The translations under genes were made by a program, and so were the position numbers. From Pseudooceanicola lipolyticus (lineage in GTDB: Bacteria; Pseudomonadota; Alphaproteobacteria; Rhodobacterales; Rhodobacteraceae): a DNA stretch of 64,000 bases. Shown in pieces: positions 9,123 to 64,000 of this stretch. Where the stretch lies: assembly GCF_002786325.1 (NCBI RefSeq), contig NZ_PGTB01000001.1, positions 124,001-188,000 of the forward strand, read 5' to 3'. Under the pieces are notes generated by a model. The model was given only the letters and a program-made list of their open reading frames with translations. It searched no databases and was not told the origin of the DNA. The first letter of the stretch is position 1; each line of letters starts with the position of its first letter.

Positions 9123-10418
9123 TTACCTCATGAGGCCCGGAAGGAAGGTCGCGACCTGCGGAATGATCAGCACCAGGATCAACCCGGTCACCAGCGCGAA
9201 AATGTAGGGCAGAACGCCCGCGAAAATCGCGCCCAGCCTGACGTCCGGAAGCACCGATTTCACCACGAATACGTTCATGCCGATGGGTGGTGTGATCAGG
9301 CCGATCTCGGAGACCAACACCACCAGGATGCCGAACCAGATCATGTCGATGCCGTTGATCTGCAACGCGGGCAGAAACACCGGCACCAGCAGGACCAGGA
9401 TACCGATCGCCTCGAACACCATACCCATCAGGATGGCGATGATGCAGACGAAGATCACCAGCTGGAAGGGCGAAAGCTCCCATTCGTCGACAAGGTCAAG
9501 CAGGTCGTAGGGCATGCCGCTCAGGTTGATGAACTGCGAAAACACGATGGCGCCCAGAAGCACGATAAAGATCGTCGCGGTGGTTGTGGTGGCATCTACG
9601 AGGCAATCGCGCCATTCGCCCAAGGTCAGCAAGTGGCCACGCATGACGGCGATCACCGCCGCGCCAAAGCTGCCGATCCCCGCGGCCTCGGTTGCGGTGA
9701 AAGCACCGGAATAGATGCCACCCAGCACGACAAGGAACAGGATCAAGACCGGCAGGGTGCCGCGAATGGCCTCCTTGCGGCGGGCGGGTTCCAGCGGCGG
9801 GGCCGAAGGCGCGGCCATAGGGTTGCGGCGCACGGTGATGCCGACAGCAATCAGGAACAGAATGACCAGCATCAGACCGGGCAGGATCCCTGCGATGAAC
9901 AGCAGCCCGATATCCTGCTCGGCGATCAGCCCATAGATCACCAGCGGCACCGAGGGCGGGATCATGATGCCCAGAGTACCGCCTGCGGCAATCGTCCCCG
10001 AGGCGAGCCGGTCGGAATACTTGTAATTGCGCATCGGCGGCATCGCGACCTTGGCCATGGTGGCCGCGGTGGCCAGCGTAGAGCCGCAGACCGCCGAAAA
10101 CCCGCCTGCTGCCAACACCGTCGCCAGCGCCAGGCCGCCCCGGAACCGTCCCAGCGCGGCATAGGCCGCGTCATAAAGATCCTGGCTGATCCGCGCATGA
10201 ACGATGAAGACGCCCATCAAGATGAAAAGCGGAATGACCGACAGGTTGTAATTCATGCTGTCGTGGAACACCTGCTGGCCCACCATGGCCAGCGACGCGT
10301 CGAACCCGCGCAGCATGGCAAAGCCGACAAAGCCCACGATCAGCGTCGCGAAACCGACGCGAAACCCGATGAAGCAAAGCGCGAATAGGACGGCGAACCC
10401 GATCAGAGCCGTGGTCAT
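9123..10418 (-). CDS. dctM: TRAP transporter large permease (DctM type)
   Basis: Inner-membrane ion-coupled transport subunit, 431 residues, almost entirely hydrophobic with about a dozen predicted helices. Family landmarks include SVIPLFILMG, GGLALATVLAAGGFSAVCGS, TIAAGGTLGIMIPPS and the C-terminal EIGLITPPIGMN. The ATG overlaps the stop of the small-permease gene (TGATG), which fixes the start. It works with the small permease and the binding protein just upstream to import one substrate. It is followed at 5 nt by the sulfatase gene, linking uptake to ester hydrolysis. Confidence 0.92.
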   Translation of the reverse strand: MTTALIGFAVLFALCFIGFRVGFATLIVGFVGFAMLRGFDASLAMVGQQVFHDSMNYNLSVIPLFILMGVFIVHARISQDLYDAAYAALGRFRGGLALATVLAAGGFSAVCGSTLATAATMAKVAMPPMRNYKYSDRLASGTIAAGGTLGIMIPPSVPLVIYGLIAEQDIGLLFIAGILPGLMLVILFLIAVGITVRRNPMAAPSAPPLEPARRKEAIRGTLPVLILFLVVLGGIYSGAFTATEAAGIGSFGAAVIAVMRGHLLTLGEWRDCLVDATTTTATIFIVLLGAIVFSQFINLSGMPYDLLDLVDEWELSPFQLVIFVCIIAILMGMVFEAIGILVLLVPVFLPALQINGIDMIWFGILVVLVSEIGLITPPIGMNVFVVKSVLPDVRLGAIFAGVLPYIFALVTGLILVLIIPQVATFLPGLMR

Positions 10419-53078: not shown

Positions 53079-53210
53079 TCCCACGCTCCCGTTAGGCGGA
53101 TTCGCCTGTTAGTGTTGCATGTCCGGGCCGTTCGGGAGGGCGCCGGCCGATTTCTTGGTATCGGCAAGGATAATGCGGTTGACCCAAGCGGATCAGCAAA
53201 AAAGCATAAT

Positions 53211-53231
53211 CCTAAACATTAGGTGGCCTAA
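53211..53231. promoter_or_regulatory. triple alternating operator before the LysR start
   Basis: CCTAA-aca-TTAGG-tgg-CCTAA gives two overlapping inverted repeats sharing the middle unit, ending 1 nt before the LysR ATG. Its position suggests autoregulation and control of the divergent CMD genes. TTGACC at 53179 is a possible -35 but its spacing to CATAAT (20 nt) is poor. Confidence 0.45.
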
Positions 53232-53232
53232 T

Positions 53233-54177
53233 ATGATTCGAAATCTGCCCTTTACCACGCTTCGCAGTTTCGAATGCGTTGCGCGCCTCGGGAGCATCAG
53301 CCGCGCCGCCGAAGAGCTGAACGTGACGCAAAGCGCGGTCAGCCAGCAGATCAAGGCGCTGGAGGAATGGACCGGGTGCAGTCTTCTGGTGCGCAGCCGA
53401 TCGGGCAGCCGTCCGACCGACGATGGGGCCATGCTGGCCCGGACGATCGCCAGCGGTCTCGGTCAGATTTCCGATCTGTGTTCGCAAATCCAGAGCCGCA
53501 GGCAGAAGAACGCGACGATTGTGGTCGCTTCGCTGCCAGGGTTCGCGGTGAACTGGCTGTTCCCGCGGCTGATCCGCTTCGACGAGCAGAACCCGCAACT
53601 GTCGGTTTCGATCAATACCAACGTCTCGGGCGGCGACCTCGCCGCGGGGGACTGGGACCTATCAATTCGCTATGGTCTGGGCAGCTATCGCGGGATGCAC
53701 GTTGAGAAACTGTTGCCCGAGACATTGGTGCCGGTCTGCGCGCCGCGTTTGCTGACGGAAGGGCCGCCGCTGGAGACTCCGGGCGACCTTGCGCGGCATA
53801 CGCTTCTCATCGACGATGTGGCCGATTGCGGTGGCGAGCCGCCGACGTGGTCCTACTGGGCCGAGGCGGCCGGGATCAGCCTGCCGAAGCCGCAGAACAT
53901 GCGCCAGTTCGGGCAATCGAACATGGTGGTTCAGGCGGCGATCGAGGGCTACGGCGTGGCGCTGGGACGTTCGCCGCTTGTCGAGGCGGCGCTGGCGGAC
54001 GGTCGCCTGGTGGCGCCACTTCGGCACGAGGTGCCATCACAATACTCCTACTGGTTGGTCTGCAACCGGAATGCGCTCCGGTCGGCCCGTTTGCAGAGCT
54101 TCCGCGCGTGGCTGCTGGAGGAGTCGCGCAGTTCACGCAGCGAAGCAATGTTAAGCTCTGCTAATGCAACACATTAA
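53233..54177 (+). CDS. LysR-family regulator (GcvA-like)
   Basis: Regulator of 314 residues: N-terminal HTH with LRSFECVARLGSISRAAEELNVTQSAVSQQI and a C-terminal effector domain with the GcvA-type phrase SIRYGLGSYRGMHVEKLL. The ATG is chosen because the HTH begins at once and the palindromic operator abuts it. It lies between the divergent CMD/M29-like genes and the Rieske oxygenase operon and probably regulates both. Confidence 0.88.
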   Translation: MIRNLPFTTLRSFECVARLGSISRAAEELNVTQSAVSQQIKALEEWTGCSLLVRSRSGSRPTDDGAMLARTIASGLGQISDLCSQIQSRRQKNATIVVASLPGFAVNWLFPRLIRFDEQNPQLSVSINTNVSGGDLAAGDWDLSIRYGLGSYRGMHVEKLLPETLVPVCAPRLLTEGPPLETPGDLARHTLLIDDVADCGGEPPTWSYWAEAAGISLPKPQNMRQFGQSNMVVQAAIEGYGVALGRSPLVEAALADGRLVAPLRHEVPSQYSYWLVCNRNALRSARLQSFRAWLLEESRSSRSEAMLSSANATH

Positions 54178-54244
54178 GCATCGGCTATTTTAGTGAGCGT
54201 CTCGGACCCGGCACACTGATCCTGTCTCGCAGCGGGTAAGGTGC

Positions 54245-55300
54245 ATGTTTCTGAGAAATTGCTGGTATGTCGCCGGATGGGGCGCGGATTTCGGGCGTCA
54301 GCTGAGCGCCCGGACGATTCTTGGTGACGAGATTGTCATTTTCCGCAGGACCAACGGGAGCGCCGTGGCGCTCGAGAACGCCTGCCCGCACCGCAAGCTG
54401 CCACTGTCCGAGGGTGCGCTGCGTGGCGATACGGTGGAATGCGGCTATCACGGCCTGACGTTTGATTGTTCCGGGGCCTGCGTCGCCGCGCCGACGCAGC
54501 CCGACAACATCCCGCGTCGTGCGCGCGTGCGCAGTTATCCGGTTGTCGAACGCTACCGGCTTCTTTGGATCTGGATGGGCGATCCGGACCTGGCGGACCC
54601 GGAGAAAATTGTCGAAATCGAGGAGTTCGATAATCCCGAGTGGGGGCAGACCGACGGCGGGACAATTGACATCGATTGCAACTACCTGTGGGTCTGCGAC
54701 AACCTGTTGGATCCCAGCCACGTGGCCTGGGTGCACGTGTCTTCCTTTGCCGGGGCGGGCACGGATAGCGAACCCCTGACGGTGGCGCGGCGTGGAAACG
54801 GGGTGCTGGTCCATCGCTGGATCATGGGAACGAAACCCAGCCCGTACTATGCGCCGCTGCTCAAGTTCAAAGGCGCTTGCGACAGGCTGCAGCATTACGA
54901 GATGATCTACCCGGGCATCGGTATCAACAAGTCCGTCTACACGCCGGCCGGGACCGGAGGAGATGGCTCCAAGGCGGTTGCGCTCACCTACATCAACATC
55001 TCGTATAACTTCATGACGCCGATAGACGCGGACAGGACACGTTACTTTTGGTTCCAGCACCGCAATACGGATGCAACGGACAAGGCTATTTCCGAGAAGA
55101 TGAATGCCGGCGCCCGGATCGCATTCGAGGAAGACCGTGCAGTCCTTGAGAAGGTGCATTGGGGCATGAAGCACAAGGCCAGCCCGTCGCTGGACCTCGG
55201 CCTCGATGCCGGGGCGAAACTTTTCCGGCTCGGCATGGAGAAATTGATCGCGGGGGAAAGTGCGCAGATGACAGAGGTGCAGGACGGGGCGCTGCCTTGA
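54245..55300 (+). CDS. Rieske non-heme iron oxygenase, VanA type
   Basis: Oxygenase subunit of 351 residues. The Rieske [2Fe-2S] ligands are C47-P-H49 and C66-x-x-H69 (CPHR ... CGYHG). The mononuclear iron ligands fit D156-x-x-H159-x4-H164 in the LLDPSHVAWVH segment. VanA-type enzymes O- or N-demethylate methoxy- or methylamino-substituted substrates. No reductase partner is encoded in the window, so electrons must come from elsewhere. It is followed by a polar amino-acid importer and RidA, which hints at a nitrogen-containing substrate. Start has AAGG upstream. Confidence 0.88.
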   Translation: MFLRNCWYVAGWGADFGRQLSARTILGDEIVIFRRTNGSAVALENACPHRKLPLSEGALRGDTVECGYHGLTFDCSGACVAAPTQPDNIPRRARVRSYPVVERYRLLWIWMGDPDLADPEKIVEIEEFDNPEWGQTDGGTIDIDCNYLWVCDNLLDPSHVAWVHVSSFAGAGTDSEPLTVARRGNGVLVHRWIMGTKPSPYYAPLLKFKGACDRLQHYEMIYPGIGINKSVYTPAGTGGDGSKAVALTYINISYNFMTPIDADRTRYFWFQHRNTDATDKAISEKMNAGARIAFEEDRAVLEKVHWGMKHKASPSLDLGLDAGAKLFRLGMEKLIAGESAQMTEVQDGALP

Positions 55301-55389
55301 TCCGCTGACGCCAAGACCCAAACGACCATTTCAATCAATCCGGCCCGTAAAGTAGAAACCAATGGCCGGCTCGCCAACAAGGAGACGAC

Positions 55390-56217
55390 ATGATGACATT
55401 CCCCAGACGGACTCTGCTGTTCGGTGCGCTTGCCGGCGCACTTTGCCTTGGCCTGACCATTCCGGGCGGCGAGGCCCGCGCCCAGGCGACGGAACAGACC
55501 TCGCTGCTCGACAAAATCCAGTCGCAAGGTGTGTTGCGGGTGGGAACCACCGGGGACTATTACCCGATGACCTTCCGCGAGGTCGGTGAAGACGAGTTCA
55601 TCGGCCATCAGATCGACGCGGCGCGAGAGCTTGCCAAGGACCTTGGCGTGGAAGTCGAATTCGTCACCACGGATTGGAAGACAATGATCACCGGCATACA
55701 GGCAGGGCGCTACGATATCGCGATGAGCGGTACCTCGATGAGCCTGTCTCGAGCCAAGGTCGTGGGTATGAGCACCCCATGGGGCATCAACGGCTTCGTG
55801 CCGATCATCCTCAAGCAGAACGCGGACAAGTTCAGCTCTTGGGACGATCTCAACAGCCCGGACGTGACCGCGGGTGTCACGCTCGGCACCACGATGGAAG
55901 ACTATATCCGCGCCGAGTTGCCCAATGCGAATGTTCGCAGCGTCGAAAGCCCGGGCAATGGCTGGCAGGAGGTTCTCGCCGGGCGGTCGGATTACACCGT
56001 GACCACACTGGTCGAGGCATCGGGCCTGCAGGAGCGTTACGAACAGATCCAAATGATCTTTCCAGATCAGGCCCGCAGCGCGCTGCCGATGGCCTTTCTC
56101 ACGCCGATCGACGATCAGATCTGGCTTAACTATGTAAACAACTGGGTGTTCCTCAAACAGACCGCGGGATATTTCGACGAACTCAACGAGAAATGGGGCG
56201 TCGTGCTAAAGCAGTAA
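55390..56217 (+). CDS. Polar amino-acid-type ABC transporter substrate-binding protein
   Basis: Periplasmic receptor (SBP_bac_3 family) of 275 residues with a signal peptide ending near GEARAQ (residue 31). The mature domain includes LRVGTTGDYYPMTFRE and RYDIAMSGTSMSLSRAKVVG. GGAG lies 6 nt before the ATG. It is separated from the Rieske gene by 89 nt. The ligand pocket sequence differs from the hydantoin-operon receptor, so the ligand is probably different. The ATPase and single permease follow. Confidence 0.9.
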   Translation: MMTFPRRTLLFGALAGALCLGLTIPGGEARAQATEQTSLLDKIQSQGVLRVGTTGDYYPMTFREVGEDEFIGHQIDAARELAKDLGVEVEFVTTDWKTMITGIQAGRYDIAMSGTSMSLSRAKVVGMSTPWGINGFVPIILKQNADKFSSWDDLNSPDVTAGVTLGTTMEDYIRAELPNANVRSVESPGNGWQEVLAGRSDYTVTTLVEASGLQERYEQIQMIFPDQARSALPMAFLTPIDDQIWLNYVNNWVFLKQTAGYFDELNEKWGVVLKQ

Positions 56218-56247
56218 GCCCCTCCGCGGCTTGAAGTGACCAAGACC

Positions 56248-56640
56248 ATGAACCCGAAAATCGAAACCTATTCGTCGAACCGCCCTTGGGAAGTGACGCA
56301 TCGTCACTCCCGAGGGGTCAGCTATGGCGGCATTTTCGAGACCTGCCTCACGTCGCCCTCCAACCCGGACGGCACCATCATCGGCAAGGGTGATCTCTAC
56401 GCTCAGACCGTCCGGTGTTATGAAATCATCCTCGAAACCATGAAGACCGCCGGATACACGCCCGAGGATCTGGTGCGCTGCGATGTGTGGCTTCTGGACA
56501 CGGCGCAATACGAAATTGCCGCGAGGGCGCATCGCGACATGGTGCCGGAGACCATTCGCCCGGTGCTGTCGTTCATCGGCTGCGCGAACTTCTGGCACCC
56601 CGACATCCTGGTCGAGGTCTCGGTGAGGGCATTCCGGTGA
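56248..56640 (+). CDS. RidA/YjgF-family protein
   Basis: Small trimeric-type protein of about 130 residues. RidA proteins hydrolyse reactive enamines and imines to keto acids. The substrate-binding arginine is present in TIRPVLSFIGC and the acidic residue in ILVEVSV. The start is uncertain: ATG before NPKIETYSSNRPWE matches the family's usual N-terminus and an upstream GTG has no ribosome site. It overlaps the ATPase gene by GTGA, so it is embedded in the transporter operon, where it suggests imine-forming metabolism of the imported compound. Confidence 0.82.
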   Translation: MNPKIETYSSNRPWEVTHRHSRGVSYGGIFETCLTSPSNPDGTIIGKGDLYAQTVRCYEIILETMKTAGYTPEDLVRCDVWLLDTAQYEIAARAHRDMVPETIRPVLSFIGCANFWHPDILVEVSVRAFR

Positions 56641-57386
56641 CTTCGGACACGAACATCGCCGTCCGGCTGACCTCGGTGCACAAGTCCTATGGCGATTACG
56701 AGGCGCTAAAAGACATAGATCTCGAAGTGCAGTCCGGTGAAAAAGTCATCATCTGCGGGCCGTCGGGCTCGGGCAAGTCGACGCTGATCCGTTGTATCAA
56801 CCGGCTGGAGGCTCACAGCAGCGGGCAAATCGTCGTGGACGGGATCGAACTTGATGGCGATACCAAGCACCTTGCTGCGATCCGCAAGGACGTCGGCATG
56901 GTCTTCCAGCAGTTCAACCTGTTTCCGCATATGACCGTGCTTGAAAACCTCGTACTCGCTCCGATGCGGGTACGCGGTACAAGCCGGGCGGCGGCCGAAG
57001 CTATGGCGCTGGCTCTGTTGGAGCGGGTGCGAATTCCAGAGCAGGCGCACAAGTATCCGGCGCAGCTTTCGGGCGGACAGCAGCAGCGGGTGGCGATTGC
57101 GCGGGCCCTTTGCATGAAGCCGCGCATCCTGCTCTTTGACGAGCCGACATCGGCGCTGGACCCGGAAATGATCAGCGAAGTTCTGGATGTGATGGTGGAA
57201 CTCGCGCGTGAAGGCATGACAATGATTTGCGTCACCCACGAGATGGGGTTCGCGCGCAAGGTGGCCGACACGATGGTTTTCATGGACCAGGGTCGGATCG
57301 TGGAAAAGGCACCGGCGTTGCAGTTCTTCGACGCGCCGGAAAACCCGCGGACGCGGCTGTTCCTCGACCAGATACTTTCACACTGA
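56637..57386 (+). CDS. Polar amino-acid-type ABC transporter ATP-binding protein
   Basis: ATPase of 249 residues with Walker A GPSGSGKST, Q-loop VFQQFNLFPHMTV, signature LSGGQQQRV and Walker B LFDEPTSALDPE. The GTG start lies in a GTGA overlap with the ridA stop and is fixed by the conserved first strand. It pairs with the permease 12 nt downstream. Confidence 0.92.
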   Translation: MTSDTNIAVRLTSVHKSYGDYEALKDIDLEVQSGEKVIICGPSGSGKSTLIRCINRLEAHSSGQIVVDGIELDGDTKHLAAIRKDVGMVFQQFNLFPHMTVLENLVLAPMRVRGTSRAAAEAMALALLERVRIPEQAHKYPAQLSGGQQQRVAIARALCMKPRILLFDEPTSALDPEMISEVLDVMVELAREGMTMICVTHEMGFARKVADTMVFMDQGRIVEKAPALQFFDAPENPRTRLFLDQILSH

Positions 57387-57398
57387 AGGATGTGACGT

Positions 57399-58169
57399 TT
57401 GCAAAACCCCGTTCGGCTTGCCGTCATCGGTGCCGCCCTGCTGTTACTGGGCGGGTGCGCGCAAAGCAATTACACTTGGGGCTGGCACGTGGTGTCGCCG
57501 TTTGATGCACGCGGCCTGACGAACGTGCAGTTCCTGCTCAACGGCGTCTTCTCGACCATCTCCGTGGCGCTGGTATCAATCACGCTTTCGGTGCTTCTCG
57601 GCTTGATCTTCGCTTTGCCGGCACTGTCTTCGAACCGCTACCTGCTGTTTCTCAACCGTGCCTATGTCGAGCTGTTTCGCGCCGTGCCGATGCTGGTGCT
57701 GATCCTGTGGGTGTACTACGGCGTGCCTGTCTTGACCGGATTGCAGCTGAGCGTGTTCGTCGCGGGGGTGATCGCACTGGCGCTCTGCGACAGCGCCTTC
57801 GAGGCCGAAATCTTCCGCGCCGGGCTGCAATCGGTCGAGGAAGGCCAGCGCGAGGCGGCCGACGCGCTGGGGCTGAGCTATGCCGACAAGCTGCGCTTTG
57901 TCGTCCTTCCCCAGGCCGTGAGGCGTGTTCTGCCGCCGCTGGGGAACCAGTTCGTCTACATGCTGAAGGCATCCTCGCTGCTCTCGGTTATCGGCTACAG
58001 CGAATTGACGCGCAGAGCCAACGAGCTTGTGGTGGTCGAATACCGGCCGCTGGAGATCTACAGCCTGCTTGTGTTGGAATATCTCGTGCTCATTCTTCTG
58101 GCCTCTTTTGGCGTGCGCAGGCTGGAACGCCACCTGGCGCGCAGCGACCGAAGCGCAGGAAGATCCTGA
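57399..58169 (+). CDS. Polar amino-acid-type ABC transporter permease with lipobox-like N-terminus
   Basis: Membrane permease of 256 residues with the coupling region EEGQREAADALGLSYADKLRFVVLPQAVRRVLPP. The start is a TTG with AAGGA 7 nt upstream. The first 20 residues end in LLLLGGCAQ, which fits a lipoprotein signal peptide (L-G-G-C lipobox), unusual for a permease. A WGWHVVSPFD stretch follows before the first transport helix. Only one permease is encoded, so a homodimer is expected. Last gene of the operon; 124 nt then separate it from a convergent regulator. Confidence 0.87.
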   Translation: MQNPVRLAVIGAALLLLGGCAQSNYTWGWHVVSPFDARGLTNVQFLLNGVFSTISVALVSITLSVLLGLIFALPALSSNRYLLFLNRAYVELFRAVPMLVLILWVYYGVPVLTGLQLSVFVAGVIALALCDSAFEAEIFRAGLQSVEEGQREAADALGLSYADKLRFVVLPQAVRRVLPPLGNQFVYMLKASSLLSVIGYSELTRRANELVVVEYRPLEIYSLLVLEYLVLILLASFGVRRLERHLARSDRSAGRS

Positions 58170-58293
58170 ACGGCTCTGCCCTGAACGCGAGGGGGAGGGC
58201 GCCATGGCGATCAGCTCAGTCTACCCGAGGTATGGGAGTCGACTTACTCCAACTGCTCCAGCCTTTTGGCATCTGCGGCTCAGGCGGACAGCG

Positions 58294-59973
58294 TCACACC
58301 TCCAAGCGATATTTGTTGATTTTGTTGTAAAGCGTTCGAGTGCTCATTCCGAGTTCTTGTGCCGTCTTTCCCCGGTGGAACCCATTGCGCAACAAGGCGT
58401 CGGCAATCCAGTCCCGTTCGGTTCTGGGACGCTCGGCCCCTGCCTGTGGCAAGCCGGTGTTCACATCGGAAAGGATGTTCTGATCAAGGGGGCCGAGGTG
58501 GCGCTGGCCGACGATGCCATCGGCGCTGTTGATGGCGCGACGAACGATGTGGCGCAGCTCTCTGACGTTGCCCGGCCAGTCATATTCGAGCAACCGGCGC
58601 AGGGCGGCATTGGTAAAGCGTGGCGTGTCGCCCAGAGCCTCGCGGCCGAAATGCAGCGCCAGTTCCGGGATGTCGTCAGGGCGCTCACGCAGCGGCGGCA
58701 GGGCCAGCTCTTCGGCGGCGAGCCGGAAGTAGAGATCGCGGCGGAAGTGATCGCTGCTGCGGGGGTCAATTGAGCTGGTGGCGATGATCCTGGCGCGCAC
58801 CTGCCGCGCAGAGGTCTCGCCGATGCGCTGTATCAGGCCCTCGTCAGCGAAGCGTAGCAGCTGGCCCTGATGTCCAGGGGAGAGGGCGACGACCTCTTCG
58901 AGGATGGCTGTTCCGCCAGAGGCCAGCTCCAGCGCACCTCGCGAAGTGGCCGTGCCGAGCAGCAGGGCGCTGCCGTCCTGCTCCGTCAGGCTGGGGCAGT
59001 CGATCACCACCGGCGCACGGCGGGTGCGGCGCCCGGAACCGTGCAGCACCCGTGCCGCCAGCGTCTTGCCGGTGCCGGTTTCGCCGCGGATCAGCACCGG
59101 GTCGTCGCGGTGCGCAAGATCGCGCAGCCTGCGCCGCGCCTCCTGCATCGAATGCGACGATCCGACCAGCGCGGCGTCTGCCGTGGTTTCGGCCGCCTCG
59201 ACTGCGGCAAGCCGTGGGATCGCCTTGAAGCTTTCGGCCACGTCCCGCAGCGTCTGTTCCAGCGGGATGCGGTCCAGCGTCGAGCCGGCGATATAGCCCT
59301 GGGCGCGGCTGATCCGGGTCACCGCCAATGCCTTTTCCGGCGAGGTAATGGGGCCGCCGATGCAGAGCTTTTCGATCGGGGCCGGGATACCAGCGAGGAT
59401 GCGGTTGATCTGGGCCGCCGCGCTTTCCACGCTCCAGCGCGTGGAAACGCCGGTGCTGCCGCCGGTAAAGCCGATATTGACGCAAATGGTGCCGGCACCT
59501 GCCTGCACCATCGCATGTGCCTGCGCGTTCGACACCACGTGCGCCAGCGCCTGCAGCCCGCGGGCAGAGGCCTGGCGCACCAGTTCGAGCTCGCGGTCAA
59601 AGCCCAGTCCCTCCCGGTCGAGCACGGTGGCAATGCGGCCGTCGAGCAGCGAGGTCGGAGGGAAGTTGCAGACGCCGGAAAATCCCAGCTCGCGGGTCCT
59701 GTCGACCAGCGCCGCGATGTCGAGCCCGGGGTCCGATACGCTGAGCCCGGCAAAGACCGGCGCCTTGCATCGCCCGAGGATCTCGCGTTCGGCAAATTCG
59801 AAGACCCAGTCATTTGCCGAGCGCACCGGGAGGTAGGATGTGAGCGAGGAGGCGCCCTGTACCCGGAACCGCCCGGCATTGAGCGCCAGCAGGTAATCGG
59901 CCCCGGCGCTGTCGGCGGCCTGTGCCGTCATGCCCGAGCCGACCACGGCACCGAAACGAAAATCGCGGCTCAT
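58294..59973 (-). CDS. PEP-hydrolase-like TIM barrel fused to GAFTGA-less AAA+ domain and Fis HTH
   Basis: Predicted transcriptional regulator of 559 residues in three parts. Residues 1-250 match the PEP-hydrolase/COG5564 TIM barrel (ALNAGRFRVQG, GVCNFPPTSLLDG, GFTGGSTG). Residues about 270-495 form an NtrC-type AAA+ domain with Walker A GETGTGKT (297-304), a changed Walker B AILEE (356-360) and DLYFRLAAEELALPPLRERPDD. The GAFTGA loop is absent: between 338 and 346 the chain reads LLGTATSRG. Residues about 515-559 are a Fis-type HTH. Without GAFTGA it should not remodel sigma-54 holoenzyme and may act on sigma-70 promoters. It overlaps its paralogous partner gene by ATGA. Confidence 0.85.
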   Translation of the reverse strand: MSRDFRFGAVVGSGMTAQAADSAGADYLLALNAGRFRVQGASSLTSYLPVRSANDWVFEFAEREILGRCKAPVFAGLSVSDPGLDIAALVDRTRELGFSGVCNFPPTSLLDGRIATVLDREGLGFDRELELVRQASARGLQALAHVVSNAQAHAMVQAGAGTICVNIGFTGGSTGVSTRWSVESAAAQINRILAGIPAPIEKLCIGGPITSPEKALAVTRISRAQGYIAGSTLDRIPLEQTLRDVAESFKAIPRLAAVEAAETTADAALVGSSHSMQEARRRLRDLAHRDDPVLIRGETGTGKTLAARVLHGSGRRTRRAPVVIDCPSLTEQDGSALLLGTATSRGALELASGGTAILEEVVALSPGHQGQLLRFADEGLIQRIGETSARQVRARIIATSSIDPRSSDHFRRDLYFRLAAEELALPPLRERPDDIPELALHFGREALGDTPRFTNAALRRLLEYDWPGNVRELRHIVRRAINSADGIVGQRHLGPLDQNILSDVNTGLPQAGAERPRTERDWIADALLRNGFHRGKTAQELGMSTRTLYNKINKYRLEV

Positions 59974-60614
59974 GTCGGGGCGACCTCCAGGTGGACGAAG
60001 CCGTCGACCTTCAACCGGTGTAGCCCCAGCTGGTCATCGTGCAGGGCAGAGGTATAGGCCAGGATCTCGGACTTCGGCTTTTCGCGGCGGATCGCATCGA
60101 CGATGGATTGCAGCGCGGCACGGTAGATGCCCTCCCTCGCCAAATCCGGGGCGTCGTGCAGGCCGGGGTGCAGCACCAGCCGTTGCAGACCGGCATCAAG
60201 CGCCTGGCGCGCCTGATCGAGCGAGACGAAGAAGGCCATCGTCTCAAATCCGGCCTGGGCGGCCCGGGCGAGATAGCCGTATTCGAATTCCGGGGTGGCC
60301 GGGATGGTGGACATGGATTGCCGCGTGGTGCCTTCCAGCAGGATCGACGAGGGCCAATTCGTCACGCCGCGATACCCGGCTGCGCGCAGGGCCGCGTGAA
60401 AGGCCGCCTCGGTGCCAAAGGGATCGCTCGCCAGCACACCGGCCCAGCGGCCATGGCCCGGTGTCTCGCGCAGGACGCGGTTGTGGTCCATCCGCGGCAT
60501 GACAAAGGCCAGATCGGCCTGGGTTTCCGTCAGCCCGACGAGGCAGGGACAGAAGATTGTGTCGAGGCCGTCGGTGCGGGGGGCGTCATGGCCGGTGATG
60601 ATGAAATGCTGCAT
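59970..60614 (-). CDS. Divergent PEP-hydrolase-like TIM-barrel protein
   Basis: Protein of 214 residues homologous to the TIM-barrel input domain of the next gene: AGVLASDPFG against AGLSVSDPG, RGVTNWPSSILLEG against SGVCNFPPTSLLDG, FFVSLDQARQALDAG against HVVSNAQAHAMVQAG. It is about 50 residues shorter than the full barrel and lacks the N-terminal strand with NAGRFR, so it may be an incomplete barrel, a dimerisation partner or a decoy. It is first in the two-gene operon and couples to the regulator through ATGA. Start ATG opens opposite the Liv operon promoter. No characterised homologue comes to mind. Confidence 0.6.
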   Translation of the reverse strand: MQHFIITGHDAPRTDGLDTIFCPCLVGLTETQADLAFVMPRMDHNRVLRETPGHGRWAGVLASDPFGTEAAFHAALRAAGYRGVTNWPSSILLEGTTRQSMSTIPATPEFEYGYLARAAQAGFETMAFFVSLDQARQALDAGLQRLVLHPGLHDAPDLAREGIYRAALQSIVDAIRREKPKSEILAYTSALHDDQLGLHRLKVDGFVHLEVAPT

Positions 60615-60622
60615 GCCGGCAG

Positions 60623-60733
60623 TTCAGCAGGTTTCAGCATAATTCGGAAGCAATTTCTGAAAAGTACCGAGATTGGTGGTGGCGCGCCGGGCGCCATCGT
60701 CATAAGTTACTGAAAATAATGAAATATTTTTCC
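60623..60733. promoter_or_regulatory. CTGAAA/TTTCAG repeat cluster in the regulator-Liv divergent promoter
   Basis: Half-sites occur as TTCAG at 60623, TTTCAG at 60632, CTGAAAA at 60657 and CTGAAAA at 60711. TTTCAG and the first CTGAAA form an inverted pair with 19 bp between. Around the last copy, GAAAATA and TATTTTTC make a second inverted repeat (60713-60733). I found no -24/-12 sigma-54 promoter here. The cluster is the best candidate target of the adjacent regulator. Confidence 0.4.
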
Positions 60734-60803
60734 GTGAAGGCGCGCGTCCTACCGTTGTTGCATGCCGCCTTGGGCTGTCCAATACCAAACCAGGGGAGGC
60801 ACA

Positions 60804-61670
60804 ATGACACTATTCTTCATCGTGACGCTGAACGGCCTGACGCTGGCGGCGCTCTATTTTCTGGCCGCCAGCGGCTTCAGCCTGATCTTCGGGTTAATGC
60901 GCACCATCAACATGGCGCATGGCGCCTTGTTGCTACTGGGAGGCTATGTGGGCTTCAGCGTGACCGAAGCCACCGGCCTCTGGGGGCTGGGGGTGCTGGG
61001 CGGCGGCCTTGTGGCGGCCTTCGCGGGGGCGCTGGTGCAGTTCGGGGTGCTGGGTTGGATGCAGGGCGACGAGCTGCGCCAGACCCTCGCCTCGATCGCG
61101 ATCTCGATCATCATGGCCGATCTGATGCTCTGGTATTGGGGCGGGATCACCTATCAGGTGGAGCTGCCAGAGATGCTTGCGGGCGGCCAGCGCCTGCCGC
61201 TGCTTGGGGTGGGGTATGCCAGCATTCGCCTGGCTCTGATGGGGTTTGCGCTGGTCACCGGCGTGGCGCTTTGGCTGCTGATCCAGAAGACGCGGTTTGG
61301 CGCCGTGATCCGCGCCGGTGTCGACGACCAGGCAATGCTGCGGGCGCTTGGCTTCCCGATCGAACGGATCTTCATCGGCGTCTTCGCGTTGGGCGGAATG
61401 TTGGCGGGCATGGCTGGCGTGGTGGCGGCCTCGGCGCTGTCGATCGCGCCAGGCACCGATCTGCAATTCCTGCTGTCCTCGCTGGTCGTGGTCATCGTCG
61501 GCGGCATGGGGTCGGTCGGCGGCGCGGCTCTGGGTGCGCTTCTGGTCGGGCTCGCCGAGCAATACGGTCTGGCCTATGCGCCGACCTATGGCGCGGTTTT
61601 CACCTTTGCAATCATGGTTCTGGTCTTGGCGGTGCGGCCGCAGGGGCTGATGGGAAAGGCTGAGGCATGA
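60804..61670 (+). CDS. livH: Liv-type ABC transporter permease (LivH)
   Basis: Inner-membrane permease of 288 residues. The opening LNGLTLAALYFLAASGFSLIFGLMRTIN and AHGALLLLGGYVG are LivH hallmarks; VVVIVGGMGSVGGAALG is the late coupling loop. The ATG has GGGGAGG about 6 nt upstream, a strong site suited to the first gene of an operon. It overlaps livM by ATGA. The binding protein gene comes third, an order different from the other Liv cluster of this window. Confidence 0.92.
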   Translation: MTLFFIVTLNGLTLAALYFLAASGFSLIFGLMRTINMAHGALLLLGGYVGFSVTEATGLWGLGVLGGGLVAAFAGALVQFGVLGWMQGDELRQTLASIAISIIMADLMLWYWGGITYQVELPEMLAGGQRLPLLGVGYASIRLALMGFALVTGVALWLLIQKTRFGAVIRAGVDDQAMLRALGFPIERIFIGVFALGGMLAGMAGVVAASALSIAPGTDLQFLLSSLVVVIVGGMGSVGGAALGALLVGLAEQYGLAYAPTYGAVFTFAIMVLVLAVRPQGLMGKAEA

Positions 61671-62635
61671 AATATGCTCCGCTCCTGATCGGGCTGCTGT
61701 CGCTGCCCTTTTTGCTGAACGATTTTTGGCTGACCCAGGTCGCCACGCGGGCGCTGATCCTCGGCATCACCGCGTTAAGCCTCAGCTTTCTCGCGACCTA
61801 TCTGGGTGTCGTCTCCTTTGCCCAAGCGATGATGGCGGGTGTCGGGGGCTATACCATCGCCTTTTTCGGGCCGAATACGGTGGAGGTCGGGCGCGAACTG
61901 CCGTTCTGGCTGTCGATCCCGTTGGCGCTGGCGCTGGCGACGCTGACCGGCGCGCTGACCGGCCTGATCGCACGGCGCTCGCGCGGCATCTACGCAATCA
62001 TGATCACGCTCGCCATCGGCGTGGCCTTCTTCTACTTCACCCGGCAGAACTATTCCCTGTTCAACGGCTGGACCGGGTTCTCCGGTGTCCGCGCCCCTGA
62101 GGTCATGGGCATCAGTCTACGTGCGCCGGCGCCGCTCTACCTGACAAGCCTCGCAGTCTCGGTGATGGCGCTGGCTCTCGTGGCGGGCTTTGTCCGCGCG
62201 CCTCTGGGGCTGACCATCCAAGCGTTGCGCGACTCGCCGGGCCGGGTGCGCGCCTTGGGCATTCCGACGACACTTCCTATTGTCGCGGCCTTTGCCTTTT
62301 CGGGCTTTCTGGCCGGGGCAGGGGGCATCCTCAACGTCTGGTACAACGAGCGGATCTCGTCTTTTTCGGTCGGACTGGGCCCGATCATCGACATCCTGAT
62401 CATTTGCGTGATCGGCGGGCTGCGGCATCCGGCGGGGGCCTTCATTGGCGCGATCGCCTTCGTGCTGCTGGAAACCTTCGCCGTCGACCTGATTGACCGC
62501 GACCGCTTTAACACCCTGATCGGTTTGGTGCTGCTGGCCATCGTCATGCTGGCGCCACACGGGCTGCAGGGCCTGGCAGCGGGGCTTGTCTCGCGCCTGC
62601 GGCCCGGACCCGCCACCGCAAAAACCACGACCTGA
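61667..62635 (+). CDS. livM: Liv-type ABC transporter permease (LivM)
   Basis: Inner-membrane permease of 322 residues with SFLATYLGVVSFAQAMMAGVGGY, RRSRGIYAIMITLAIGV and the coupling loop CVIGGLRHPAGAFIGA. Start is fixed by the ATGA overlap with livH. It forms the heterodimeric channel with LivH and precedes the receptor gene by 23 nt. Confidence 0.92.
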   Translation: MKYAPLLIGLLSLPFLLNDFWLTQVATRALILGITALSLSFLATYLGVVSFAQAMMAGVGGYTIAFFGPNTVEVGRELPFWLSIPLALALATLTGALTGLIARRSRGIYAIMITLAIGVAFFYFTRQNYSLFNGWTGFSGVRAPEVMGISLRAPAPLYLTSLAVSVMALALVAGFVRAPLGLTIQALRDSPGRVRALGIPTTLPIVAAFAFSGFLAGAGGILNVWYNERISSFSVGLGPIIDILIICVIGGLRHPAGAFIGAIAFVLLETFAVDLIDRDRFNTLIGLVLLAIVMLAPHGLQGLAAGLVSRLRPGPATAKTTT

Positions 62636-62658
62636 CTCATCAAATGGGAGGAACCAAG

Positions 62659-63897
62659 ATGAACAAGTTCAAGACAGCCGCCTCGATCCTGGCGCTCTGC
62701 TGCCTCGCGGCGCCGGCTATGGCCGAGGACATCAAGATCGGCGTGATCTCGGTGCTCGAAGGCGCCTTCGCCGGGCCCGGCATGGACGGGGTGCGCGGCG
62801 CCAAACTGGCAGTGATGGAGGCTGGCGGCGAAGTGAACGGAAACGAGATCGAGGTCATCACCATGTCCTCGGACGCCAGCCCGGACAGCGCGGTAAATGC
62901 GGCGCGCAAGCTGATTGAACAGGACGGCGTCGACTTCATCGTCGGACCGCTCTCCGGCTCCGAAGGTCTGGCTCTGCGCGACCTGTCGAAATCCTACCCC
63001 GAGGTGACGTTCCTGAATGGCTCCTCGGCCTCGCAGGACACCACCCTGCGCGATGCCTCCGCGAACTTTTTCCGCTTTGGCGGCGACGGGGCGCAATGGA
63101 TGGTGGGCGTGGGTGACTATGCCTATAACGAGCTCGGCTATGAAAGCGTGGCCATCGTGGCCGAGGATTACTCTTTCCCCTACACTCAGGTGTTGGGCTT
63201 CATGGCGGAGTATTGCGAGGCCGGTGGACGCGTGCCAGAGAAGTTCTGGACGCCGATCGGAAACAAGGATTACTCCTCGGTCGTCTATTCGATCCCGCAG
63301 GATGTCGACGCCATTTTCGTGGTGCTGGGTGGGGCAGATGCGGTCAACTTCCTGACGCAGTACGCCCAGGCCGGTGGCGACAAGCCGATCATCGGCAGCT
63401 CTGTCACCATCGACCAGTCGGTGCTGGATTCCCACGGTCCGTTCAAGAATTTGCTGATCGGCGCCCCTTCCGGCACGCCCACGGTGAGCAATTTTGACGG
63501 CGCGGAATGGAAGGCTTTCACCGCGTCCTACAACGAAGCCTTCCCGGACGGCTTCTCTGCACCTTCGATCTTCGGCCACCACTATTACATGAGTGCCAAG
63601 GCCGCGATGCTGGCACTCGAGGAAGTCGGCGGTGACCTCTCGGACGGGCAGGAAGCTTTCCGCGAGGCGCTGGCCAAGCTGGAGTTCACCACCCCCACCG
63701 GGGGCACCATGCGGCTCGACGAAAACCGCAACGGCATCGTCGACAACTTCGTGACCGAGGTCTTCGAGCGTGAGGACGGCACCTTGGGCAACCGGGTGGT
63801 CAAGGTGGTGCGCGATGTCGATCAGTACCTGGGGATGGACAAGGAGGAATTCCTTGCCATGGGCCCCGTCAGCCGGGACAACCCCTCGTGCCCGTGA
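62659..63897 (+). CDS. Liv-type ABC transporter substrate-binding protein
   Basis: Periplasmic receptor of 412 residues with a signal peptide ending at APAMA near residue 23. The mature part begins EDIKIGVISVLEGAFAGPGMDGVRGAKLAV and includes LSGSEGLALRDLSKSYPEVTFLNGSSASQ, typical of the type-1 fold. GGGAGGA lies 6 nt before the ATG. It overlaps the next ATPase gene by GTGA. The importer is divergent from the TIM-barrel regulator pair, which likely senses the imported compound or a metabolite of it. Confidence 0.9.
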   Translation: MNKFKTAASILALCCLAAPAMAEDIKIGVISVLEGAFAGPGMDGVRGAKLAVMEAGGEVNGNEIEVITMSSDASPDSAVNAARKLIEQDGVDFIVGPLSGSEGLALRDLSKSYPEVTFLNGSSASQDTTLRDASANFFRFGGDGAQWMVGVGDYAYNELGYESVAIVAEDYSFPYTQVLGFMAEYCEAGGRVPEKFWTPIGNKDYSSVVYSIPQDVDAIFVVLGGADAVNFLTQYAQAGGDKPIIGSSVTIDQSVLDSHGPFKNLLIGAPSGTPTVSNFDGAEWKAFTASYNEAFPDGFSAPSIFGHHYYMSAKAAMLALEEVGGDLSDGQEAFREALAKLEFTTPTGGTMRLDENRNGIVDNFVTEVFEREDGTLGNRVVKVVRDVDQYLGMDKEEFLAMGPVSRDNPSCP

Positions 63898-64000
63898 GAC
63901 CCGATCACACCCATCCCAATGCCCTGGAAGTCCGGGGCATTGGGCGGCGCTTCGGCGGGTTCTGGGCGGTGCAGGACGTGAGCCTCACCGTCCGCCCCGG
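63894..64000 (+). CDS. Liv-type ABC transporter ATP-binding protein (partial)
   Basis: Only the first 35 or so codons are inside the window. The frame reads NALEVRGIGRRFGGFWAVQD and then VSLTVRPG, the first strands of an ABC ATPase just before Walker A, as in LivG. The GTG start overlaps the receptor stop (GTGA). Continuation beyond the right edge is expected to give LivG and then LivF of this importer. Confidence 0.8.
   Translation, partial: MRPDHTHPNALEVRGIGRRFGGFWAVQDVSLTVRP

What the first reader, a model, noticed from the sequence alone, without database searches (positions are those of the whole stretch)
58294..59973. AAA+ regulator with an enzyme-like TIM-barrel sensor and no GAFTGA loop
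The chain joins a PEP-hydrolase-like TIM barrel to an NtrC-type AAA+ domain and a Fis HTH. Walker A (GETGTGKT) and the DLYFRL arginine-finger region are present, but the stretch that should hold GAFTGA is about a dozen residues shorter and reads LLGTATSRG, and Walker B is AILEE rather than the usual LFLDE. GAFTGA is required for contact with sigma-54 in characterised activators; AAA+ relatives without it (TyrR, some Rhodobacter NtrC proteins) act with sigma-70. An enzyme-fold sensor driving such a module would be a new kind of one-component metabolite switch.
Basis: partly seen in the sequence, partly recalled or inferred. Interest (0 to 1): 0.8.

Follow-up and report, generated by a model that had tools for sequence, protein, structure and literature searches.

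The report
Metabolite regulator that dropped sigma-54
This is a bacterial gene switch made of an enzyme-like sensor, a worn-down motor domain and a DNA-binding domain; relatives that keep the sigma-54 contact loop sit beside a sigma-54 promoter, while this one and relatives without the loop lack that promoter wherever it could be checked, so they probably now work with ordinary RNA polymerase.

Summary
In detail: 559 aa on the minus strand, with a PF09370 barrel, a Sigma54_activat AAA+ domain and a Fis HTH. The GAFTGA loop is deleted (9 residues fewer than PspF), Walker A and arginine fingers are kept, and Walker B is AILEE. It is not a lone oddity. Of 91 barrel-AAA+-Fis regulators aligned, 9 keep GAFTGA and 82 do not; 66 of the 82 have also lost at least one other ATPase motif.

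The new result is at the presumed target promoter, the divergent gap before an ABC-importer/UPF0261/PF09370-enzyme operon. All 9 GAFTGA+ loci carry a -24/-12 sigma-54 promoter there; 0 of 36 testable GAFTGA-less loci do. Outside the window's wider clade a direct-repeat operator occurs in 27 of 27 gaps, with or without GAFTGA; the window's inner clade has a different palindrome in 10 of 10. Loop and promoter were lost together, most simply by a switch to sigma-70. The barrel lacks a histidine invariant in the paralogous enzymes, so it is probably a non-catalytic sensor.

GAFTGA-less regulators are known (TyrR, HupR, R. capsulatus NtrC), so this is a new variant. Ligand, sigma factor and direction of control are untested.

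The parts
58294..59973 (-). P0001: one-component regulator, PF09370 barrel + AAA+ (Sigma54_activat) + Fis HTH, no GAFTGA
59218..59952 (-). PF09370 TIM-barrel sensor domain, residues 8-252; two histidines invariant in the sampled enzymes are N166 and I205 here
58711..59169 (-). AAA+ Sigma54_activat domain, residues 269-421
59062..59085 (-). Walker A GETGTGKT, residues 297-304
58936..58962 (-). remnant of loop 1, LLGTATSRG (residues 338-346), where GAFTGA would be
58501..58689 (-). AAA+ lid, residues 429-491
58309..58428 (-). Fis-type HTH (HTH_8), residues 516-555; recognition region STRTLYNK instead of the SRKTLYNK type of OpA-bearing relatives
59970..60614 (-). P0002: truncated PF09370 barrel, overlaps P0001 by 4 bp; a homologue lies next to the divergent promoter in the 45 gaps examined (gaps were picked by such a gene)
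60615..60803 (.). divergent intergenic region: promoters of P0002-P0001 (-) and of the transporter operon (+); no good -24/-12 element on either strand (best 4 of 8 forward, 3 reverse)
60646..60658 (.). OpB palindrome GGAAGCAATTTCT, proposed operator, present in 10 of 10 loci of the inner clade (up to 1 mismatch)
60701..60706 (+). CATAAG, -10-like element at +55 from the start of OpB; a TAA lies at this distance (within 1 bp) in 10 of 10
   Evidence: function inferred
60804..61670 (+). livH-type permease, first gene of the presumed target operon (ORF listed from 60762; ATG at 60804 matches the homologues)
61667..62635 (+). livM-type permease (name from its place in the operon)
62644..63897 (+). 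periplasmic binding protein (Peripla_BP_6); livG, livF, UPF0261 and the PF09370 enzyme follow, ending beyond the window

Best explanation
P0001 is a one-component regulator descended from a sigma-54 enhancer-binding protein. Its barrel is a paralogue of the PF09370 enzyme encoded in the divergent operon, probably non-catalytic, and senses a metabolite of that pathway (inferred). The AAA+ domain has lost the sigma-54 contact loop but keeps Walker A and arginine fingers, so it probably still binds ATP and assembles (inferred). The Fis HTH binds the OpB palindrome at 60646-60658 (inferred from conservation). Bound there, centred near -61 of a -10-like element, it controls the livHM-SBP-livGF-UPF0261-enzyme operon through sigma-70 RNA polymerase, most likely as a class-I-type activator, and probably represses its own promoter, since OpB begins 31 bp upstream of the P0002 start codon. 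Shown by sequence: loss of GAFTGA; absence of -24/-12 at the target; co-occurrence of GAFTGA with -24/-12 in relatives; conserved operators and gene cluster; relaxed AAA+ constraint. Inferred: that the operon is the target, the ligand, the ATP role, the sigma factor and the sign of control.
For: 9 of 9 GAFTGA+ loci carry -24/-12 (obligatory GG/GC plus 6-8 of 8 other positions) in the divergent gap towards the operon; 0 of 36 GAFTGA-less gaps exceed 4 of 8 in that direction. Of 9 sites scoring >=7 in 311,614 strand-bases of GAFTGA+ loci, 8 lie at this promoter; of 14 such sites in 2,790,034 strand-bases of GAFTGA-less loci, none lies in a tested gap. OpA (up to 2 mismatches) in 27 of 27 gaps outside the window's wider clade, 9 with and 18 without GAFTGA; OpB in 10 of 10 of the inner clade. 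HTH recognition residues differ between OpA loci and the window's wider clade. AAA+ identity exceeds barrel identity only in the GAFTGA+ clade, 77 v 69%; inner clade 62 v 79%. Enzyme His183: 88 of 88 enzymes, 0 of 48 regulators sampled. Conserved neighbourhood. RpoN is present in the genome, so the loss is not forced.
Against: No experiment. GAFTGA+ is one side of a single branch, so 9/9 v 0/36 is about one evolutionary contrast, not 45 independent ones. The generic sigma-70 scan finds no promoter in 60560-60830; the -10-like element is weak (3-5 of 6), and I saw no -35. Operator motifs were derived from the same gaps that they were counted in. Operator continuity is shown only outside the window's wider clade: its 18 gaps have no OpA, and in its outer members OpB is found in 0 of 5 and 2 of 3. 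The second enzyme histidine (227) is kept in 6 of 48 regulators, all six close relatives of P0001, so loss of catalysis rests mainly on His183. Activation rather than repression is inferred from geometry and ancestry. 37 of 82 loci, all GAFTGA-less, lacked the divergent layout and could not be tested.
Confidence: 0.6

Rival explanations
1. It is a ligand-relieved repressor (TyrR-like main mode): OpB-bound protein blocks sigma-70 promoters on one or both sides, and the ligand releases it.
For: OpB begins 31 bp upstream of the P0002 start codon, where it could block that promoter; a GAFTGA-less relative, Caulobacter NtrC, also represses genes (PMC10274813 passages).
Against: GAFTGA+ relatives with a -24/-12 promoter must activate the same operon (general knowledge of sigma-54), and OpA stays 88-158 bp upstream of the first gene in two GAFTGA-less groups (15 loci). 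Fixed spacing, +37 to a TGG(C/A)A box in 7 of 8 loci of one group and about +55 to TAA in 10 of 10 of the inner clade, suits contact with polymerase.
Confidence: 0.22
2. It still activates sigma-54 polymerase through a non-canonical loop, at a promoter elsewhere or a degenerate one.
For: The genome keeps RpoN and other activators with GAFTGA or GAFPGA.
Against: No -24/-12 at the presumed target in any of 36 GAFTGA-less gaps; the loop is absent, and AAA+ is less conserved than the barrel in all seven GAFTGA-less groups measured.
Confidence: 0.05
3. The AAA+ domain keeps ATP hydrolysis for another partner or for DNA remodelling, as its authors predict for Caulobacter NtrC at sigma-70 promoters.
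For: Walker A lysine, two Walker B acids and both finger arginines are all kept in 16 of 82 GAFTGA-less rows, P0001 among them, all in the window's wider clade; dN/dS of the AAA+ domain is 0.07-0.09 in the inner clade's three pairs.
Against: 66 of 82 GAFTGA-less rows have lost at least one of these features, among them loci that keep operator and gene cluster, so hydrolysis looks dispensable for the shared job.
Confidence: 0.15
4. It is a decaying, non-functional gene or an assembly artefact.
For: Draft genome, 439 contigs, 5.68% contamination; AAA+ decay in the family.
Against: Syntenic orthologues in Ruegeria, Shimia and Pacificibacter, dN/dS 0.03-0.09 where computable in the inner clade's pairs, conserved operator and HTH.
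Confidence: 0.02

Closest known systems
Rhodobacter capsulatus NtrC (and Rhodobacterales NtrC)
   Same: AAA+ regulator with the GAFTGA loop deleted; passages of PMC10274813 say that it activates through sigma-70 and that ATP binding rather than hydrolysis is essential
   Different: Response-regulator receiver instead of a TIM barrel; two-component, not one-component
TyrR, DhaR, HupR, VpsR (GAFTGA-defective relatives)
   Same: Defective GAFTGA; TyrR, DhaR and HupR reported sigma-70-dependent (PMC3162934 passages). TyrR is likewise a one-component metabolite sensor (recalled), with a loop deleted at nearly the same place
   Different: Sensors not PF09370 (recalled). For this family the GAFTGA+ relatives and their sigma-54 promoters are at hand at the same operon
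GAFTGA+ PF09370-AAA+-Fis regulators (Billgrantia, Aquisalimonas, Ectothiorhodospiraceae, Chelativorans YIM 93263, Ancylobacter)
   Same: Same three domains, same neighbour genes
   Different: Intact loop and ATPase motifs, -24/-12 promoter at the target, OpA operator
PF09370 / TBST proteins (PDB 2p10 Mll9387; C-terminal half of plant Tm-1-like proteins)
   Same: Same barrel family; many glycine, arginine and other positions kept (Tm-1 from PMC5028733 passages)
   Different: P0001 lacks the two histidines invariant in the 88 operon enzymes sampled

Membership tests
sigma-54 enhancer-binding proteins | Sigma54_activat AAA+ domain | tested here: met
   PF00158 99.5 bits, cut-off 20.2
sigma-54 enhancer-binding proteins | GAFTGA loop contacting sigma-54 | tested here: not met
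   Loop deleted in the alignment to PspF
sigma-54 enhancer-binding proteins | Walker A and arginine fingers | tested here: met
   GETGTGKT and FRRDLYFRL aligned with PspF, R162 and R168 positions arginine
sigma-54 enhancer-binding proteins | Walker B ending in DE | tested here: inconclusive
   AILEE: first acid is E instead of D
sigma-54 enhancer-binding proteins | -24/-12 promoter at the target operon | tested here: not met
   Best forward match 4 of 8 in the window gap, against 6-8 in GAFTGA+ relatives; that this operon is the target is inferred
GAFTGA-less sigma-70-acting AAA+ regulators (TyrR / R. capsulatus NtrC kind) | AAA+ domain of the same family without GAFTGA | tested here: met
GAFTGA-less sigma-70-acting AAA+ regulators (TyrR / R. 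capsulatus NtrC kind) | Acts with sigma-70 polymerase | not testable with these tools
   Only indirect: no sigma-54 promoter, fixed -10-like element; consensus sigma-70 scan found nothing
PF09370 barrel | Match to the family model over its length | tested here: met
   219.7 bits, model 18-267 of 267
PF09370 enzyme (catalytically active) | Histidines invariant in 88 of 88 operon enzymes | tested here: not met
   N166 and I205 in P0001; six close relatives keep the second one; that these histidines are catalytic is inferred

The most novel reading that the evidence does not exclude
One regulator-operon pair preserves successive stages of a sigma-factor switch: a ligand-gated sigma-54 enhancer-binding protein became a promoter-proximal sigma-70 activator. 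It lost the GAFTGA loop and the -24/-12 promoter together while keeping sensor and, in many lineages, operator, with the operator moving from 60-73 bp upstream of the -24 box to a fixed place about 60 bp upstream of a sigma-70 start. Its AAA+ ring survives first as an ATP-binding scaffold (this protein) and, in other lineages, as a motif-less spacer. The sensor is an inactive copy of the enzyme that it regulates.
Probability: 0.35. Interest if true: 0.75.

Novelty: new variant of a known kind. Interest (0 to 1): 0.6.

Why it matters
How ATP-driven sigma-54 activators turn into sigma-70 regulators (TyrR, HupR, NtrC of Rhodobacter) is, as far as I know, described mainly from the end points. Here both states exist at one orthologous operon, even in one genus (Chelativorans YIM 93263 with GAFTGA and a full -24/-12; Chelativorans ZYF759 with neither), with the same kind of operator. 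That makes the switch testable by promoter and protein exchange. It also gives a sensor with a likely ligand, a metabolite of the paralogous enzyme, and so a handle on the unknown function of the UPF0261/PF09370 pair to which the plant Tm-1 resistance protein is related.

Tried and rejected
Lone degenerate copy: rejected, 82 of 91 rows lack GAFTGA. Pseudogene: rejected by dN/dS. Sigma-54 promoter on the reverse strand of the gap: not found; the best reverse score in the 36 GAFTGA-less gaps is 5 of 8, in L115.

Several independent losses of GAFTGA: left open. The enzyme-rooted careful tree needs at least two if loss is irreversible, but an AU test does not reject one GAFTGA-less clade (p 0.508; the held tree scored 0.19 better). 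The quick tree placed the GAFTGA+ clade beside a nine-row GAFTGA-less group; the careful tree placed it beside 42 GAFTGA-less rows (support of that group 79/82).

A TGG(C/A)A box at exactly +37 from OpA in 7 of 8 loci of one GAFTGA-less group (TGGCA in 6, TGGAA in L122; none in L144) looked at first like a relic -24 box. Its spacing differs from the +60 to +73 of GAFTGA+ loci and these gaps fail the -24/-12 test, so I read it as a sigma-70-type element, unproven.

sigma-70 consensus scan of the window gap: nothing. Rfam scan of 57000-64000: nothing. Own-genome search for OpB-like sites: one exact (this promoter), two with 1 mismatch, five with 2; the others were not followed. Paper searches: PF09370 (0 papers); TIM barrel + enhancer binding protein + Fis (0 papers); UPF0261 (5 listed), PEP hydrolase (1 listed), GAFTGA (4 listed of 5, 40 listed of 53), TIM-barrel signal transduction or sigma-54 (15 listed of 651). 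None of the titles and abstract openings listed was about this regulator. Only PMC3162934, PMC10274813, PMC12316311 and PMC5028733 were opened, as passages. The phylum search added one further fused regulator that I used (L166). Structure prediction could not be run.

Full report
WHAT IS THERE. The ORF at 58294-59973 (-) encodes 559 aa with a PF09370 barrel, a Sigma54_activat AAA+ domain, its lid and a Fis HTH, all above Pfam cut-offs. Upstream and overlapping by 4 bp lies P0002 (59970-60614, -), a truncated PF09370 barrel (54.4 bits, model 76-189 of 267). Divergent from this pair runs livH-livM-SBP and then, reaching beyond the window end on the same contig, livG-livF-UPF0261-PF09370 enzyme (Pfam for livH, SBP, UPF0261 and the enzyme; the liv names of the rest are my reading from place and sequence). 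The genome has three PF09370 matches, all in this cluster, and one RpoN match. Of its Sigma54_activat proteins I read six: one with GAFTGA (AcoR-like), one with GAFPGA (DctD-like), and four without (NtrX-like, NtrC-like, one more receiver protein, and P0001) (the names are my reading, not a database result). The other six rows are weaker or partial matches (one is a second piece of the NtrC-like protein) and were not read.

THE FAMILY. In the window's GTDB family 35 of 198 genomes have PF09370; three matches were identified as fused regulators, the window's, L036 and L037. Of 385 class genomes 38 have a barrel match; eight further fused regulators were read from them (L041-L045, L047, L048, L054). 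A scan of named genomes found 568 stretches encoding a relative of the barrel, of which the best 80 were kept; whether the other 488 are fused was not seen. Of the 80 I dropped L147 (cut by the contig end) and used only the open part of L080, leaving 78 full rows of 537-595 aa. With the window protein, the ten regulators and L166 this gives 90 full rows plus one partial, 91 in all. Rows are not independent: L041 and L083 have zero branch length, and many are Bradyrhizobium.

MOTIFS. GAFTGA is intact in 9 of 91: L087, L088, L089, L091, L105, L107, L119, L128, L137. All nine also have a canonical Walker A, LxLDE and FR(E/A)DL(L/Y)YRL. The other 82 lack GAFTGA. Sixteen of these 82 keep the Walker A lysine, two Walker B acids and both finger arginines; P0001 is one, and all sixteen belong to the window's wider clade. 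The other 66 lost at least one: the Stappia group has GERGLGRT or GEKGLGRT, lysine to arginine; the Bradyrhizobium/Rhizobium group mostly keeps Walker A but lost Walker B and the fingers; L043, L044, L045, L047, L048 and L054 lost all. Mean pairwise identity by domain in eight groups (62 of the 91 rows): GAFTGA+ clade AAA 77%, barrel 69%; the seven GAFTGA-less groups all have AAA below barrel (62 v 79 in the inner clade; 46 v 71, 59 v 82, 82 v 90, 40 v 63, 46 v 73, and 75 v 89 for a group of two). Among 16 close pairs dN/dS of the AAA+ domain is 0.06-0.23, except 0.54 in one pair with dS of only 0.02. In 13 of the 14 GAFTGA-less pairs the AAA+ value exceeds the barrel's (by 0.01 in one); the 14th had no barrel value. 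In the two GAFTGA+ pairs it is 0.08 v 0.07 and 0.06 v 0.14. So the motor is relaxed but under selection.

PROMOTER TEST. Of 82 loci (window, L036, L037 and 79 of the 80), 45 have a divergent gap between a short PF09370 gene and livH or UPF0261; the other 37, all GAFTGA-less, were not testable in this way, nor were the short loci. The pattern demanded GG at -25/-24 and GC at -13/-12 and scored eight other positions of TGGCACGN4TTGCW (a consensus from memory). All 9 GAFTGA+ gaps score 6-8 in the operon direction (8 of 9 at 7 or more; L091 6; resampled controls reach each score in at most 4% of 300). None of 36 GAFTGA-less gaps scores above 4 forward; on the reverse strand the best is 5 (L115). 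Over the whole loci, sites scoring 7 or more number 9 in 311,614 strand-bases of GAFTGA+ loci, 8 of them at this promoter, and 14 in 2,790,034 strand-bases of GAFTGA-less loci, none in a tested gap; sites scoring 6 or more number 27 and 133. Four of those 14 are one orthologous site about 320 bp before an ABC gene upstream of the regulator in Bradyrhizobium; I did not follow it. The split does not simply follow taxonomy: Chelativorans YIM 93263 (L107, 8 of 8) and Ancylobacter (L128) are alphaproteobacteria with GAFTGA, Chelativorans ZYF759 (L115) has neither loop nor promoter, and two Oceanospirillaceae loci (L085, L086) have neither. Caveat: GAFTGA+ is one side of one branch of the tree (97/81; 92), so this is in effect one contrast.

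OPERATORS. Aligned gaps show a direct repeat TTACYCA-N3-TTACYCR (OpA). With up to 2 mismatches it is present in 9 of 9 GAFTGA+ gaps (1-2 mismatches, none exact), 8 of 8 of the Stappia/Microvirga group, 7 of 7 Ensifer/Mesorhizobium and 3 of 3 others (27 of 27), and in 0 of 18 gaps of the window's wider clade. The inner clade instead has RGAARYNNTTTCY (OpB) in 10 of 10 (up to 1 mismatch); in the window it is GGAAGCAATTTCT at 60646-60658. OpB is found in 0 of 5 and 2 of 3 of the outer members of the wider clade and in 1 of 9 GAFTGA+ gaps, so the operator of the outer members is not settled. The motifs were derived from the same gaps, so the enrichment is partly circular. As an internal control, OpA sites in the whole loci number 8 in the Stappia/Microvirga group (all eight at the eight promoters), 17, 14 and 7 in the GAFTGA+, Ensifer and other groups, and OpB sites 47 in the inner clade's 367,818 strand-bases. 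The HTH differs in step: (S/A/G)RKTLYN in the OpA groups, (S/T/A)(T/P)RTLY in the wider window clade. In GAFTGA+ loci the -24 box lies 60-73 bp after the best OpA start; in the Stappia/Microvirga group a TGG(C/A)A box lies exactly 37 bp after it in 7 of 8. In the inner clade a TAA within a -10-like hexamer (3-5 of 6 matches) lies at a fixed distance from OpB, hexamer start +54 to +56, in 10 of 10; for L073 I measured from the one-mismatch site that aligns with the others, not from its exact match 20 bp upstream. Taking that hexamer as -12 to -7, OpB is centred near -61, a class I position (inference; start sites unknown).

THE SENSOR. Comparing 88 non-identical operon enzymes (at least 50% identical to the window's enzyme, so the more distant Bradyrhizobium-type ones are left out) with 48 of the 90 full regulators, many positions are shared (for example R35, R37, S43, N103, E128, GGP 206-208, S231, R235 in P0001). 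His183 of the enzyme (88 of 88) is N 39, D 4, V 3, A 1, G 1 in regulators, never H. His227 (88 of 88) is E 35, H 6, G 5, I 1, A 1; the six with H are L037, L070, L071, L072, L073 and L075, the closest relatives of P0001, which itself has I. I infer a binding-competent, probably non-catalytic barrel that reads a metabolite of the neighbouring enzyme; the inference rests mainly on His183. The enzyme family's reaction is not established as far as I know; the name PEP hydrolase is an annotation.

HOW IT MOST LIKELY WORKS. Ligand in the barrel changes assembly of an ATP-binding but sigma-54-blind AAA+ core. OpB-bound protein then activates the transporter/UPF0261/enzyme operon with sigma-70 polymerase, and may repress its own pair of genes. 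Precedents, seen as passages: R. capsulatus NtrC lacks the loop, is reported to activate through sigma-70 and needs ATP binding rather than hydrolysis (PMC10274813); TyrR, DhaR and HupR are listed as GAFTGA-defective and sigma-70-dependent (PMC3162934). A repressor reading is the main rival.

NOVELTY. The architecture and the loss of GAFTGA each have precedents. The paired loss of loop and -24/-12 at one orthologous operon, with the operator kept across both states outside the window's wider clade, is to my knowledge not described; my searches of the held library (several lists were capped) listed no paper on it. I call it a new variant of a known kind.

Noticed in passing
59970-60614 (-): P0002 homologues: a short PF09370 protein lacking the C-terminal part of the barrel (GGP...GASS...RLPxE in the window's copy) that sits at the divergent promoter in the 45 gaps, GAFTGA+ and GAFTGA-less alike (the gaps were picked by its presence); positions N120, P122, E145 and D98-P99-F100 of the enzyme are kept in 44 of 45. 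Possibly a co-sensor or antagonist of the regulator.
   Followed up: partly
own genome C15, C55, C218 (two genes), C309: Four of the six Sigma54_activat proteins read in this genome (P0001 included) lack GAFTGA and a fifth has GAFPGA, although RpoN is present.
   Followed up: partly
L080 10001-11704: Regulator of Zongyanglinia marina has its frame open only from position 10157, inside the barrel: frameshift or sequencing error; the livG match is also in two pieces there.
   Followed up: no
L095, L096, L099, L102 at about 8480: A conserved -24/-12-like site (TGGCGCGACGATTGCA) about 320 bp before an ABC ATPase match upstream of the GAFTGA-less regulator in Bradyrhizobium.
   Followed up: no
L090, L115, L117, L123, L129, L141, L122 divergent gaps: TGG(C/A)A box exactly 37 bp from the OpA start in 7 of 8 loci of a GAFTGA-less group: a relic -24 box or a new -35-like element.
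   Followed up: partly
L006, L007, L010 (family genomes): PF09370 enzyme matches in long open frames (759-763 aa) that might be UPF0261-PF09370 fusions like plant Tm-1; not read.
   Followed up: no
window 53119-57386: Upstream neighbours: a LysR-like regulator and a RidA/YjgF-like protein (my reading), a Rieske/VanA_C oxygenase and a family 3 solute-binding protein, and a polar amino acid ABC ATPase (my reading). The oxygenase, solute-binding protein, RidA-like protein and ABC ATPase were used as queries; apart from scattered ABC ATPase matches and one solute-binding match (L131) they did not recur at the other loci.
   Followed up: partly
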